Shown: positions 43,551 through 51,952 of the stretch, in pieces
How positions within the stretch are numbered: the first letter of the stretch is position 1
How the letters are laid out: each line of letters starts with the position of its first letter
Assembly: GCA_947646735.1 (NCBI GenBank)
Contig: CANTFK010000785.1
Location: forward strand, 248,001 to 312,000
Length of the DNA: 64,000 nucleotides
Reading direction: 5' to 3'
Source: Peronospora farinosa
Taxonomy: Eukaryota; Oomycota; Peronosporomycetes; Peronosporales; Peronosporaceae
Program-made: the position numbers and the translations under genes
Notes under the pieces: generated by a model
Told to the model about the DNA's origin: nothing
The model's input: the letters and a program-made list of their open reading frames with translations, nothing else
Databases searched by the model: none

Positions 43551-44613
43551 TTACAGGTGAAATTTCCGGCGCGACGTGTCAAGCTGGTGTTGTTTGTAGA
43601 CCCACTCGTACTCGCCAAACTTGGTGTCAAATGTGCCTTCCTGCAGCCAACGCAGCTTCAACGTAAACCGAGGCCCAATCTCTTGCAGCCGTGCCTTTTT
43701 CTCGTTCTCGAATGTGTAGCGGTGATTTCGTACGAAAATGAAATCGCGCTGGTTGTGGAACGTCACGACCTGGTGACCTTCGAACTCCGGTTGATGCTCA
43801 AACAGTGAGCCCAGAAATCGGCCCACGCGGTGGCCTAGTCGCGTTGAAAAGTTGTTGAGAATCAGCTCGGGTTGATGGTTGGTGCGTCGACCACGCTCCT
43901 TAATGCTAGCCGTTAACTTGACGTTTGACACTTTAAAGAATACTGTTGGACCCTTGGGCAAACGACTGACGAGCATGCTACAAGTCGCAACAAATAAAGC
44001 AAAGTTAGTTAATATGCAGCAGTTACAAACAATTGCAGGAATCATTGTAGCTCTCAGAAATGTACCCATTGCAAATCTTGCTTTTTTCAGAGAGCACGAT
44101 CAAGTGCGTGAATTTCTTGTTACTTGCAAACTGCACAATTTCCTTTATGTCAAAGGTACCTCGTTTGTAGTAAAATGAATTGGGCATCAAGTCCATAAGG
44201 TCTTTTACAAAGTGGTATAGCTCCCCACTTGGAAATGGGCGCGTTGTAATCATAAGCTTGGGCGCTTCTTCATTAGCAAAGATGCTGGCAAACTCGTCAT
44301 CTTGCTCATCAGCATCAATTTCCTCATCACCTGTATGACTGACCATTGTCACCTCTTTCTCACGTGTATTATCAATTGTACGCGGCTCCATCTTGGGTGG
44401 TGCCTCCTCGCCCAACTCCTCGGCCTCGCGTCGACGCTTGAGCTGTGCCGCTTTCTTTGCTTCCTTTTTTTCTTTACGAAACTTTTGCATCACAGCCTGT
44501 CGTTTCATTTTGTTTTTAATATGCGACGGATTACGTCTCTCAAATGCCGGCTCATTAGTGTCGGACTTCTCGTGTCCTTCATTCTTTTTCACTCGTTTCA
44601 TTGGTGGCGTCAT
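43551..44613 (-). CDS. RPF1: Ribosome production factor 1 (RPF1), Brix domain, two exons
   Basis: Nucleolar factor needed for 60S ribosomal subunit assembly. Exons 44613..44066 and 43977..43551 are joined across an 88-nt intron (GG|GTACAT ... TTGTAG|C), giving 324 residues. The N-terminus is basic and Lys-rich ([20 protein letters not shown]). The Brix domain holds [92 protein letters not shown] and [18 protein letters not shown]. It ends [19 protein letters not shown], the family terminus. Confidence 0.96.
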
Positions 44614-44768
44614 ATTTAACTCACGACGTTTTTTTGATAATGTAAAATTTACTGACTGGCGGGAGTGAAGAGTAGTAATTAAACTAGTTTTCACTTTTAT
44701 CATTAATTTAAGGGTTAATTCTTAGATTACGTTCCATTTTAGTCATTCGGTAGATTCAAGTTCTTCAA

Positions 44769-46845
44769 ATGCGTGAGGATCAAGTGGTGAGTGGACTCAA
44801 ATTTCTTCAGCATCCGAATGTTCAGGTGAATGACCTCGTATCTCATTTTTTCTGTTGTATAAAGCTTGACACTGTCGCTTTTTTTCTTTTCTTTGCAGTC
44901 AACGCCGCTATCGGAACGTGTGTCATTCTTGGAAGGAAAAGGCATGAGCAAAGAAGAGATTCAAGAGGCCATTAAACGCCATGAAAATAGCGATACAAGA
45001 GCATTTACAGATCAATCGACGACAATCCAACAACAACAGCAGCAGATGAAGACGACACCCATGATGATGAGGGCTGCAGATACGCCCATGCATCAGATGA
45101 TACATCGTCGAGGACGATATCCTGCCTATGTTCAAGTGCTGTGGACAGTGTCGTCGCTCGTAGGTGCAGCTTCGATCCTCACATTTATATGGAACTATGC
45201 AGTACAATCAGGATACATTCCGTGGCTGGTACGTTACATATTGAAAAAGGAATTGAGGAGCGTCTTGTCTGAGCGGATTACTTCTACAATATTGTAGCGG
45301 CCAATGCCATGTCTGTTAGAAGCAGCCAAGGTACAGGCGGAAAAAGAAAAGGAAGCAAAAAAGGATGATGCACTGCTAGCTGAATTAACAAGTGTCTCAG
45401 CTGCTATTCAGAAGCAAACGGAGGAACTGGCCAAAATGAGTGTGTCGCTGGACGAAAAAGAGCGTGACTTACACAACAAGACGTTGATAAGTGCACAGAT
45501 TTCCAGCTCGCTTGCTCAGCAGGGAAATGCGCAATCAATTGCTGAGTTGAAGGCTGAGATGTCTACGCTCAAGGCTCTTTTGCTTCAAAAAAAGACAGCA
45601 AATGCTAGTGACTCGGATATAATTGACGTGGTGGTGAAGAAAAATAGTGAAGACACGGAGAAGAAAAGGTTTTTGACGACTGGAAGCGAAACTGCCTCGA
45701 CACCAAATAGTGCACCACCTGCCGTGGTCTTACAGACGGTGTCCAAGGCCGAACGCATGCAGAACGCATTAAAAAAGCTACGAACTGAGGTTAGTGAGAA
45801 AATGCTGCTTGTATATTTGCCGTACGATACCTAATATGCCGCTTCTTATGCAGAATTCGCTTGAACAACTCAAGTTGGCAGCGGGTATCCTCAGTATGTA
45901 TGTCAAGAATCTCGTCGAGGTATTGCCACCTATACATTATATAAGTCGTGTATGATGTGGTATTTGACCTCGTGCAATGCTTGCTTTAGAACCCCGATGT
46001 ACCCCGCTATCGTCGCATTGCGCTCGGTAATGCGAACTTTAAGCAAAAGATCGAGCCTCTCAAGGTAATCTTTGTCTTGCACAGTCTAAAAGTACGAGAT
46101 GTCGGTATTGAGCATTTGGTTATCCGTTCTGCAGCATCACGAAGAACTTCTCAAGTCTATTGGGTTTGAGACGTCAGGTTTCAATATGGAGTGGAAATGG
46201 TACACAGCGAGCAAAACGACAGGTGCATTCGATGAGAATATTGCCATCTTGCGTGCGATGCTGAAAGCTCTTCAATCCCTCTCAAGTCCGAATGCTTCTT
46301 CGAATCTATCGCTTGAGGAGATTGCACACACCAGTCTGGAAGATTTTTTCTCTCAGCAGACTAAGAAGAATACCGAAATGTTGACAACCACCACCAAGAC
46401 TAGCACAACTTCGTTTAACAACATCAAAGAGAAGCATTCAGCAACGCAAAGCGGCAGCAGCGCGTCACTGGGTCGTACCTCTACGAGTCTCGACGAGTTC
46501 ATGGCACGATTGGAACAGCAAACCAGCGTTGGCAATATCGCTAATGCTGACATTAGTATGACGAACCCTCTTCCGTCCTCTGCAGCGATTAACGCCAGCG
46601 ATAGCGAAGAGAAGATGCCCGTGTCGGCAAGTAGCTTGATTTCTCCGACTGTGACGGCTGGCGAGCCGTCATATCCAGAGTCATTCAAGGAAGTGATGGA
46701 TCTCATTCAAAAAGGCGAGACGGTGCCGGGTATTTGTGACATCGAAGAAAAATTGTCTGTAGATTCGAGTACATTGTTAAGCGAGCAGATGAAGGTTGAC
46801 GATACTACGACGGTAGTAAAGCCTTGGGGAAAAAGTGACGCATAG
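44769..46845 (+). CDS. PEX14: Peroxisomal import protein PEX14 with C-terminal PUB-like domain, six exons
   Basis: Peroxisome membrane docking factor for PEX5. Exons 44769..44825, 44899..45228, 45298..45789, 45854..45919, 45990..46064, 46135..46845; all introns are GT-AG, phase 0, 64-73 nt; 576 residues. The N-terminal PEX5/PEX19-binding domain is MREDQVVSGLKFLQHPNVQ followed by STPLSERVSFLEGKGMSKEE. A membrane segment (LWTVSSLVGAASILTFIWNY) and a coiled coil follow as usual. Unexpectedly, residues about 285-390 look like a PUB domain: MQNALKKLRTEN, LKLAAGILSMYVKNLVENPD, then VPRYRRIALGNANFKQKIEP, HHEELLKSIGFE and WKWY. PUB domains bind the C-terminal tail of AAA ATPases such as p97. A low-complexity tail with TTSFNN-type segments ends KPWGKSDA. 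Confidence 0.88.
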
Positions 46846-48094: not shown

Positions 48095-49409
48095 TTACAT
48101 GCAGTACTTCATCTTCTTTCCGGAACAAAACATGTTTTCGGCATCCTTACCGCGTTTGCGCGCAACGACTTTTCCACTGCTCGCCGCTCGCATTGCTGCA
48201 GTGCTTCCCAACAACTTGTCAGCACTTGATCTATCGTTGGCAATAGGGAAACTGTCCAGCAGCAATGCGGGCGCCGCAGGAACCTGCGCGACCTCGCGGA
48301 GGCTTTCCTTACTATCCTTGACATGCAACTTGACGTCGTGGTCAAAGTCGTGGTCAGACGGTGATCGGCCTTGGCTATTACCACACTCCGGAGACGTCAC
48401 GCACGCAGCGGAGTCCATCGGCGAAGATACCATGGGCGACGAGTGTTCTAGCACCACGACGTCCAATTCTACGAACGACGCGGGGCTCTCGACCGGCTTT
48501 GGTGGATGAAACAAATAGACTAACTTCGACAATCCAGCTGCAAGCACGTTCGTTTTGATGTACGGCGCCGTGTAAGCGTTGAGCAAGTAGCGAGCCGCAT
48601 CTAGACAAATGGAGGAGAACAGAGCTTTCTTTAACAATTGCCAGCACCATATACAAGAGAACAATGTTCACAAGCATGGCAATACCTTGCAAGGTATGAA
48701 GAGGAGTCGTCAACGCACTCCACCATGGCTGGCCATTAACAGTACACAAATCCTCTGGCACGTAGCTCTCGTAGAGGCCCGCTAGGTACACTGCACCAGC
48801 TGCCAGTTCCACCGACTCAAGTCGTAAACACGCCACCGTATAGGCACTGTCATTCAAAAAAGACCACGCCACTTGCTTGATCTTGCTGCTCTGGACCTTA
48901 GCCTCCTGTTCACTCAGATGCTGTAGACGCACCACCTTGTCTACCTTCTCGTTAATGTACTTGTACGGATGCGTCAGTGTCAGCTCGTACGTTAAATTGT
49001 GTAAAACTACACCCTCCATCGAGATGATCTTGCTCGCAATAACTTGCGGTTCGTGCTTCTGAATAGCAAACACCTGGTCTTTCTCCACAATTTTGCGTAC
49101 AGCAATGTATTCCTTGGCAACGTAACCAATCTTCTTCGGGCTTTCTTCAGCCTTAGAGCCAAGTAGTACACATGCAGCTGCAACCAAAAACTTGTCGTAG
49201 CGTACAAGTGACTGCCGCATGTAAAAGCGATGAAGGAAATTGTCTGCACTGATCTGAGCAAGCTTCGGCAAGTCCAAAGCCTTTGCCATCTTCTCAATAA
49301 AGTCACAGGCGTTACGACGAAAGATAAGCTCGTCTGCGTACTTCATGCCATCACGTATCGAAGGCGTAGAGCGCATCTCCTGCTCGGTAAAAATCCAATC
49401 GCTCGTCAT
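48095..49409 (-). CDS. Cyclin K/T-type transcriptional cyclin, two exons
   Basis: Partner of a CDK9/12-type kinase that phosphorylates RNA polymerase II. Exons 49409..48686 and 48600..48095 are joined across an 85-nt intron (CAAG|GTATTG ... GTCTAG|AT), giving 409 residues. The start MTSDWIFTEQEMRSTPSIRD matches the family opening. Cyclin box 1 follows (FIEKMAKALDLPKLAQISAD, FLHRFYMRQS, KFLVAAACVLLGSKAEESPK) and box 2 (EGVVLHNLTYELTLTHPYKY, AWSFLNDSAYTVACLRL, LAAGAVYLAGLYESY). The C-terminal extension is Ser/Asp-rich. Whether it is K or T is not resolved. Confidence 0.88.
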
Positions 49410-51952
49410 GTTCTTTCCTGTTTGTGATGTTTTGTGTACAATGAATGGGGTTGTTGTGTATTTTGAAGGCAATTGACTGCAGTATAACAGCCATAGAAAG
49501 AATAACGTCATATACCGCCCCCTTCTTTTTAACTATTTACGGTATGGTTTTTACCTGCAAAAAATGATATCCGTCTTATACGGGAATGCCTAGAACAAGC
49601 TCAGAGGCGATGGTCCGGTGGTGATGAGAGCTGCTGTGAGTGTTGCCGTCGGGCTAGTGAAGTACTACGACTGTCCTGCCTCTACTACTTCGCTGTTTAT
49701 GCTATTCAAGGGGTATCGAGTCACTCAAGTCGCTGTCCTGCTAAAGTAAATGACGGCGTGCGCACTCTCTCTCGAAAAGCGCAATTCTTTTCTTTTCCCT
49801 CAGCTGCCACGCGGCTTTTCTTCGCGTTTTGCCCTAATGAATTGCAAATGAATTGCAAATAAATTGTCAAAGAATTGCAAAACGAGTGGTTAGAACGTCT
49901 CGGAAACTTTATATCTTGTTTTTTGTATCGACTGCAGGAAACGGCTCTTAGGACGGGTGAAATTAACGATAAAATATACATTCAGTATTATTCACCCAGC
50001 CGACATGCCAGAGAACGTTCTAGATTCGGGAGCTGAAAAACGTACGCACTGGCTCTTTACGTGCAATTCTCGTTTACCGTAAACCAAAATTAGTCACTTA
50101 AAGTCACAATTTACTGAAGTAACAATATAGACATGTTTTACGTCAGCTTCGATCAAAGCTTGCCCGTATACTGGATGCAAAATGAGTGTGATACATGCAA
50201 CGCAGACTACAGGGAAACGTAAAGCGACGCAATAAATCAATTATAAACGGCTCAAAAGCGATGTTTGTAGCATAATAAAGCACAATTGCATTGGTCATCC
50301 ATTGTCTTCTCTTGTTGCATAATAATGCATTCAATACGAAATTTTGTCCTCGACGTCAATCAAGAGTGCAATACAGTTTAGTCCTTCCGTGGTGGTGTCA
50401 GACAATAGTTAGCTAAATTCCATGAATTTTCCGCTGCTTTTGTTAGCAAAGCCTGATGTACAACTCCGTGTTTAATTAATTTTTGGAGCGAATACTTGGA
50501 ACATTTAAGTCTCCACAAATTCTACTTCCCAATAATGGCATAAGAGCAACAACGGTCAAGCGACAAAGGCCTTTAAAGAGCCGGCATTTTACCTTGGGTT
50601 TGCGTCCCTCATAACGGGGTCAAGGTTGAAAAAGGAAGGTCTTACCTCCGCTGGGGGGGGGGGGTGCGCGCGTGCAAACCTGACGGGGAGCAATAGGCAC
50701 GAAGTCCCGAGATGTGGGACGTCGACAAACACTCGACAATAAGGTATTGAGAATTTGCTGTCCTTCTCCGTTCCGCCTTGTAGTTACCGACCCGTTCGCC
50801 GAGCACGAATTTCGGTCCCACGAATCGAACTCCCGTAGAACGTGGATTAGTCCATTCTGATTCATGTCCAGGGATGGCCGTCTGGGTAGCCGGTCTGGTA
50901 TCCGGCCTCATTTACAAGGCGCCTCAGGTTGGTCAAACGGTCCCACGTGCTCTTTTGGAGTGCCCCCCGTAAAGCCCGTCGGATTACACCAGCAGAAGGA
51001 GCTAGTGCATAGGAGAACGACGTAGTTATGGCAAAACATCAGGGGATTTCCATTACAAACGACATAATATAAATAATTATAAAGATTTAATAGACACCTT
51101 GATCATCATCATGTCTCCACATTTCACTGCAGTGATGGATACCCATCTGAGTTTTGATAGGGTTATGAGGTCAAGCATGGAAGTCGGCTTGAAAGAAACC
51201 GAAGCCGATAAATATACTTGAAAAATCAGATCGGCGAAGACTGGAAGACCTATGCTGACTTTCAAGTAAAAATGGTAGCAATAGTAAGCGCTGATATATT
51301 TAAAGAATTTTGTGGACAGGGTAATCAATCGAGGCGATGTTTTTGTAAGTGACAGCTTTCGTTAGCTCCAGATGCTGATGCGCCACTGTCAATTGCTTCT
51401 CCGACGAGAGGTTAAGCACAAGCCGATTAAGGCAACGCATGATAGGACCGTCGGAGCTTTCGATTTCTGTAGCAGATTGGCGACAAGATGCCCGCACCAG
51501 AGATGTGAACGATTCTGATGTGTGTAATGACAATAAGAATGAACGACTTGAGCCAACACGATTTGTCGCTTTGTGGCGGCACCTCGACAAATGAAGTTAA
51601 CGTCGGGTGAAGATGCAATTATTAACTTGCTGGTGTATAACCGATGTAGTTGAACTTGCAGTATGTATGAGGGCAATGGTTTACTTTGTGAGACGAAGTT
51701 TGAGTCTTTGAAGTCGCCAATATAGTATAGCGCAGACCCAACACAGTTGGCCGTCCGGAGTACTCACTCCTTTAGCAGCTCGATAAGATTTCAATATCCG
51801 ACGCACTAAAAGGATTGAAACGACTAACGGATCGTTGGCCAATCGTTATGGACCATTATAAAACCAAACCTACGCATTAGTGTCCGGCTTTTGCTCAAGC
51901 AATTTGGATGACGATCACTGTAAAACATGCCGGGCTTCTGGTAAGAATTAAT
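49410..51952. other. Gene-poor region
   Basis: 2.5 kb with no gene I can support. It has short AATTGCAAAT repeats at about 49838-49882, a 12-G run at 50653-50664, and minus-strand frames (50620-50911 and 51300-51676) that may be decayed transposon but match nothing I recognise. Confidence 0.35.

What the first reader, a model, noticed from the sequence alone, without database searches (positions are those of the whole stretch)
44769..46845. PEX14 fused to a PUB-like domain
After a normal PEX14 N-terminal domain, membrane segment and coiled coil, exons 3-6 encode a segment with PUB hallmarks (a helix, KNLVENPDVPRYRRIALGNA, then HHEELLKSIGFE and WKWY). PUB domains in known proteins dock on the C-terminal tail of p97/CDC48. 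A docking-complex protein carrying its own AAA-ATPase adaptor could couple cargo import to receptor extraction by PEX1/PEX6 or CDC48. I do not know of this architecture being described for PEX14. The join is supported by five phase-0 GT-AG introns within one gene.
Basis: partly seen in the sequence, partly recalled or inferred. Interest (0 to 1): 0.75.

Follow-up and report, generated by a model that had tools for sequence, protein, structure and literature searches.

The report
Peroxisome docking protein with PUB domain
In downy mildews, their water-mold relatives and brown algae, the protein that docks cargo receptors at the peroxisome carries an extra PUB domain, a module that in other proteins grips the tail of the protein-extracting motor Cdc48/p97, which suggests a built-in link between peroxisomal import and protein extraction.

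The parts
44769..44825 (+). exon 1 of the PEX14 gene (residues 1-19)
   Evidence: splice model
44899..45228 (+). exon 2 (residues 20-129)
   Evidence: splice model
45298..45789 (+). exon 3 (residues 130-293)
   Evidence: splice model
45854..45919 (+). exon 4 (residues 294-315), 66 nt, phase 0 on both sides; carries pocket residues Y309 and N312
45990..46064 (+). exon 5 (residues 316-340), 75 nt, phase 0 on both sides; carries pocket residues Y322, A326 and N329
46135..46845 (+). exon 6 (residues 341-576 and stop)
   Evidence: splice model
44772..44979 (+). Pex14_N domain, residues 2-46 (interrupted by intron 1); expected to bind WxxxF/Y motifs of PEX5
45124..45210 (+). hydrophobic helix, residues 95-123, presumed membrane segment
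   Evidence: helix 95-123 in the model of P0001; hydrophobic by inspection, no TM program run
45322..45612 (+). long helix, residues 138-234, presumed coiled coil
   Evidence: helix 138-234 in the model of P0001; no coiled-coil program run
45751..46308 (+). PUB domain, residues 281-398 (interrupted by introns 3-5)
46669..46776 (+). PEX39-type KPWE domain, residues 519-554
   Evidence: PF17733 E 1.1e-9; only match in the genome scan
46819..46830 (+). KPWG, the PEX7-binding [R/K]PWE-type motif (residues 569-572), with Gly in place of Glu
   Evidence: KPW present in 27 of 31 aligned relatives

Best explanation
This is the only PEX14 gene that a family scan found in a downy mildew close to Peronospora effusa. 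Its product is expected to sit in the peroxisomal membrane with the PEX5-binding domain first, then a membrane helix and a long coiled coil, then a PUB domain, then a PEX39-type KPWE domain that handles PEX7. By the topology published for human PEX14 and for the plant PEX14-PEX39 fusion, everything after the membrane helix is in the cytosol. The PUB pocket (Y309, N312, Y322, N329) most likely grips the acidic C-terminal tail of Cdc48 (here ...ADADEEDLYS) and so keeps the extraction motor at the import site, where it could pull ubiquitinated receptors or stalled cargo from the membrane, while the KPWE domain resets PEX7. Shown here by computation: gene model, three domains, predicted PUB fold, conservation, core pocket residues, the Cdc48 tail, and a single PF17733 match in the genome. 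Inferred: topology, binding, recruitment and the extraction role. The lost basic gate residue (A326) predicts weaker or altered tail binding than in PNGase.
For: Splice model; Pfam; PDB sequence matches to PNGase-PUB 1.3e-5 and UBXD1-PUB 3.8e-5; Foldseek and VIA-align to PUB structures, PNGase first; pLDDT 91-97 over residues 281-390. PUB is about as conserved as the PEX14 N-domain among Peronosporales/Pythiales and Saprolegniales: mean identity to P0001 86% and 56% for PUB, 82% and 54% for Pex14_N, against 33-46% and 3-11% for the three linkers. N312 in 30 of 31 aligned relatives, Y322 and N329 in 31 of 31, Y309 in 27 of 31; the YxxN(x)9Y core and the conserved Asn are what PNGase and UBXD1 use to hold p97's Tyr805 and C-terminus (PMC6995525, passages). 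K335, at the place of PNGase R64/UBXD1 R207, is K or R in 29 of 31 and residue 324 is basic in 31 of 31. CDC48 tail EEDLYS. Arabidopsis CDC48A works at the peroxisomal membrane on PEX5, there through PUX10 (PMC13411790, a commentary read whole; the study itself not seen).
Against: The K/RxxN feature shared by PNGase, UBXD1 and HOIP, which binds the free carboxylate of p97, is AxxN, SxxN or TxxN in 31 of 31 aligned PEX14-PUBs, and mutating PNGase R55 is reported to abolish p97 binding, although UBXD1 K198E costs only 3.5-fold. In the four brown-algal rows the first Tyr is Leu; [quoted passage not shown] In P0070 N312 is Met. In brown algae PUB is less conserved (38%) than Pex14_N (57%). No binding, localisation or expression data exist here. 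Seven other PUB loci in the genome could serve Cdc48.
Confidence: 0.5

Rival explanations
1. The PUB domain reads an internal PUB-interacting motif of another peroxisomal or ubiquitin-handling protein rather than the free tail of Cdc48. The missing basic gate leaves the pocket open to ligands that continue beyond the Tyr.
For: Gate residue is Ala/Ser/Thr in 31 of 31. PNGase R55A gains binding to the internal OTULIN motif (43 uM; PMC4017264, passages). By a small alignment and by eye, five of the seven other PUB loci in this genome (L002, L003, L004, L006, L007) keep Arg at the gate, L001 has Asn and L005 Pro.
Against: No candidate ligand was found; internal motifs in other peroxins were not searched systematically (a motif scan covered only the 31 PEX14 rows and hit EEFY in two). 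Basic residue 324 lies two residues before the gate and may compensate.
Confidence: 0.22
2. The PUB domain has left PIM binding and binds a folded partner, as SPATA2-PUB does with CYLD, or ubiquitin or a ubiquitin-like domain, as reported for the far face of PNGase-PUB.
For: Four of four brown-algal rows lack the first pocket Tyr; SPATA2 precedent; PNGase-PUB second surface (PMC4017264 passage).
Against: In 24 of 24 rows that I class as oomycete (P0029 and P0037 by similarity), and in unnamed P0054 and P0071, the Tyr-Asn-Tyr core is intact, which a non-PIM domain would not need.
Confidence: 0.13
3. The PUB domain is the membrane tether for PEX1/PEX6, in place of PEX26, PEX15 or APEM9, which are reported from animals, fungi and plants.
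For: PEX26 is described as present only in Metazoa and Fungi, with PEX15 and APEM9 as counterparts (PMC8172628, passages); the Pex26 family gave no match in this genome.
Against: The PEX6 candidate ends KLRKQYSSR and the PEX1 candidate ends IAHQRTALA, neither a hydrophobic-Tyr tail (last exons read by eye). The Pex26 search had a silent control, so that absence is weak.
Confidence: 0.1
4. Gene-model artefact: two neighbouring genes wrongly joined.
For: Two relatives' gene models skip exon 5 (P0033) or exons 4 and 5 (P0040).
Against: All three domains together in 43 of 55 relatives across oomycetes and Ectocarpus, and contigs without room for five introns (P0037, P0029).
Confidence: 0.02

Closest known systems
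PEX14 (peroxin-14) of the docking complex
   Same: Pex14_N domain, hydrophobic helix, long helix in that order
   Different: carries a PUB domain and a KPWE domain in the C-terminal half
PEX14-PEX39 fusion of non-opisthokonts
   Same: PF17733/KPWE domain at the C-terminus; fusion outside opisthokonts is published (PMC12339391 passage; plants, PMC12173945 passage)
   Different: PUB domain lies between the coiled coil and the KPWE domain; fourth motif residue is Gly in the window
PUB domain of PNGase (NGLY1)
   Different: Ala in place of Arg55; sits in a presumed membrane peroxin rather than a deglycosylase
PUB domain of UBXD1 (UBXN6)
   Different: Ala in place of Lys198; no UBX domain among the Pfam matches
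PUB domains of HOIP and SPATA2
   Different: HOIP pocket motif is YxxN(x)6PxY and has Lys99 at the gate; SPATA2 lacks the first Tyr
Arabidopsis CDC48A-PUX10 at peroxisomes
   Same: brings Cdc48 to the peroxisomal membrane (PMC13411790)
   Different: uses a separate UBX protein, not a domain of PEX14

Membership tests
PEX14 | Pex14_N domain | tested here: met
PEX14 | membrane helix and coiled coil after the N-domain | tested here: inconclusive
   helices 95-123 and 138-234 in the model of P0001; no TM or coiled-coil program run
PEX14 | binds PEX5, sits in the peroxisomal membrane | not testable with these tools
   needs bench work
PUB domain (PF09409) | profile score above curated cut-off | tested here: met
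   54.9 bits, cut-off 34.3
PUB domain (PF09409) | PUB fold | tested here: met
   the first 20 rows of VIA-align are all PUB-bearing chains
p97-tail-binding PUB | YxxN(x)9Y pocket core and the conserved Asn | tested here: met
   Y309, N312, Y322, N329
p97-tail-binding PUB | basic residue of the K/RxxN motif | tested here: not met
   A326; Ala 26, Ser 4, Thr 1 of 31. So it is not filed as a p97-tail-binding PUB, only as probably working like one
p97-tail-binding PUB | binds Cdc48/p97 C-terminus | not testable with these tools
   a partner tail EEDLYS exists
PEX39 / KPWE domain (PF17733) | profile score above curated cut-off | tested here: met
   38.6 bits, cut-off 27
PEX39 / KPWE domain (PF17733) | [R/K]PWE motif | tested here: inconclusive
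   KPWG here; of 31 relatives 22 have KPWE, 2 KPWG, 3 KPWA/S/Q, 4 none. E62A is the least impaired single mutant of human PEX39
PEX26-type tether of PEX1/PEX6 | Pex26 profile match | tested here: not met
   no Pex26 among the matches of this protein up to E 1

The most novel reading that the evidence does not exclude
PEX14 of oomycetes and brown algae is a three-in-one import-and-recycling hub: it docks PEX5, resets PEX7 through its PEX39 domain, and recruits an AAA motor through a PUB domain whose gate was already open in the common ancestor of these lineages. It would make Cdc48, rather than PEX1/PEX6 alone, a standing part of their peroxisomal import machinery and could explain why no PEX26-type tether is reported from them.
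Probability: 0.2. Interest if true: 0.8.

Novelty: new variant of a known kind. Interest (0 to 1): 0.6.

Why it matters
How Cdc48 and PEX1/PEX6 share the work at the peroxisome is open; a 2026 commentary asks whether cofactors other than PUX10 work with CDC48A there. A docking protein with its own Cdc48-adaptor-like domain, found from oomycetes to brown algae, is a ready-made system to test whether docking and extraction are physically coupled, and its PUB pocket differs from the best-studied ones at one telling position. It also adds a domain to the published PEX14-PEX39 fusion.

Tried and rejected
Two genes wrongly joined: rejected. PEX1/PEX6 as the obvious PUB partner: not supported. Only five two-domain AAA reading frames were followed to a stop (L013, L014, L015, L016, L024), and only CDC48 (L013) ends in a hydrophobic-Tyr tail; one search listed 27 AAA matches, so most were not followed. 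L016 and L024 end in exons read by eye without a splice model. PEX6 (L016) was named because PEX6 entries match it across both ATPase modules (residues 224-693), although p97 entries score higher. PEX26: no match, but the control was silent, so nothing follows. PEX13: only a sub-threshold match, not pursued. Weak Pfam hits to DUF3000, Fes1 and DUF6303 are below their cut-offs. The three protein searches scored only about 8,000 candidates each, chosen by shared words and length, so absence from diatoms, alveolates, Rhizaria or plants was not tested. In the VIA-align table low-Z rows such as Timeless_PAB and gasdermin are not taken as kin.

I considered exon skipping as an isoform switch: exons 4 and 5 are symmetric and carry the pocket, and two relatives' models skip them, but these may be annotation errors.

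Full report
What is there. Pfam finds Pex14_N (2-46, E 1.8e-12), PUB (297-356, E 8.1e-15) and KPWE_dom (519-554, E 1.1e-9), each above its curated cut-off. The window lies in an assembly of 46.85 Mb in 274 contigs; the closest protein is 98% identical, from Peronospora effusa, so I take the organism to be a downy mildew close to it. In that assembly this is the only Pex14_N locus above the cut-off (three weaker matches lie below it) and the only KPWE locus. The six-frame scans ignore introns, and the PUB of this gene, split over four exons, did not appear among the seven PUB loci, so absence from a scan is weak evidence.

The join is real. Of 55 relatives, 43 carry all three Pfam domains and 51 carry PUB (precomputed domains). 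The four without PUB are P0033, P0040, P0045 and P0053: P0033 lacks exon 5 and P0040 exons 4 and 5, P0053 looks like a partial model with introns retained (sequences), and I did not read P0045. P0037 (553 aa, contig 1,678 nt) and P0029 (586 aa, contig 2,052 nt) run through every junction (sequences) in contigs too short to hold five introns of this size; I infer cDNA. The protein searches go by shared words and scored about 8,000 candidates each.

Pocket. Published work places p97 Tyr805 between two Tyr of a YxxN(x)9Y motif, with a conserved Asn (N201 UBXD1, N58 PNGase) near the terminal carboxylate (PMC6995525, passages). Here these are Y309, N312, Y322 and N329. In the 31 rows (P0001 standing for the window): Y309 27 (Leu in the four rows P0055, P0064, P0067, P0068), N312 30, Y322 31, N329 31. 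The rim residue matching UBXD1 R207 is Lys or Arg in 29 of 31. The exception is the K/RxxN basic residue: Ala 26, Ser 4, Thr 1. Loss of Arg55 is reported to abolish p97 binding in PNGase, a change at UBXD1 K198 costs 3.5-fold, and PNGase R55A admits an internal motif (PMC4017264, passages). So the pocket is p97-like at its core and open at its gate. Among the seven other PUB loci, compared by a small alignment of six and by eye for L007, none shows the full Tyr-Asn-Tyr core (L005 and L007 are incomplete pieces), and five have Arg at the gate.

Partners. CDC48 (L013, above the CDC48 cut-off) ends ADADEEDLYS, like the human TEDNDDDLYG quoted in PMC6995525. The PEX6 candidate ends KLRKQYSSR and the PEX1 candidate, found by its PEX-1N domain, ends IAHQRTALA; both ends were read by eye.

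Topology and the third domain. [quoted passage not shown] By that logic PUB and KPWE face the cytosol. PEX39 uses [R/K]PWE to bind PEX7, and outside opisthokonts PEX39-related sequence is fused to PEX14 (PMC12339391, passages). The window motif is KPWG; 27 of 31 rows have KPW, 22 of them KPWE. A table in PMC3178647 marks P. infestans as having PEX7 and a PTS2 thiolase (passage, header partly cut).

Age and constraint. The three-domain form occurs in Peronosporales, Pythiales and Saprolegniales (the orders are my knowledge, the species names come from the call) and in brown algae, Ectocarpus and Laminaria. The simplest reading is an origin before oomycetes and brown algae parted; no tree was built. 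Mean identity of PUB to P0001 is 86% in 18 Peronosporales/Pythiales rows and 56% in four Saprolegniales, close to Pex14_N (82%, 54%) and far above the three linkers (33-46%, 3-11%); the membrane region (88%, 18%) and the coil (70%, 20%) fall off faster; in four brown-algal rows PUB falls to 38% against 57% for Pex14_N. P0047, in the alignment, was left out of these group means. P0029, P0037 and P0067, whose sources name no organism, were placed in their groups by similarity.

What is known. No paper among the 5.39 million held has PEX14 together with 'PUB domain' or 'PUG domain'. The comparative study that included P. infestans lists only Pex14_N for PEX14 and does not contain the word PUB in its main text (PMC8172628, passages). 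The Nannochloropsis paper has no PUB in its main text (PMC7710942). The PEX39 paper's main text has no PUB either, but its Extended Data Fig. 1a has grey boxes for extra domains in some taxa, which I could not see. Two broader searches (the latter listing 10 of 53 papers) showed nothing by title or abstract, and two papers were not opened. Most subscription papers and preprints were not searched.

Verdict. A real, conserved variant of PEX14. That it docks Cdc48 is the best guess at about 0.5; the open gate and the brown-algal Leu are the main reasons for doubt.

Noticed in passing
window 45854-46064: Exons 4 and 5 are symmetric (66 and 75 nt, phase 0) and together encode the core ligand-pocket residues; gene models of Phytophthora ramorum (P0033) and P. 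lilii (P0040) skip one or both, so a PUB-less isoform by exon skipping is conceivable.
   Followed up: partly
P0070, P0071 (sources name no organism): Proteins with PUB and, in P0070, Pex14_N but no KPW motif and no KPWE domain match. If these lineages lack the PTS2 route, the PUB role would be independent of PEX7. P0071 lacks a Pex14_N match.
   Followed up: partly
L001:1414-2925 (-): A thioredoxin-UBA-PUB protein in the same genome whose PUB shares the stretch YVKNLVE with PEX14 and is the best BLAST match among the other PUB loci.
   Followed up: partly
window 44026-44721 (-): Open frame starting close upstream on the other strand; by memory it resembles ribosome production factor 1 (Brix family), but Pfam gave no match for this stretch. 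A shared short promoter region is possible.
   Followed up: partly
window 48381-49532 (-): Cyclin gene downstream (Cyclin_N E 8.5e-11).
   Followed up: no
G000 (PF04088 scan): PEX13 has no match above its cut-off in this genome; introns or divergence may hide it.
   Followed up: no
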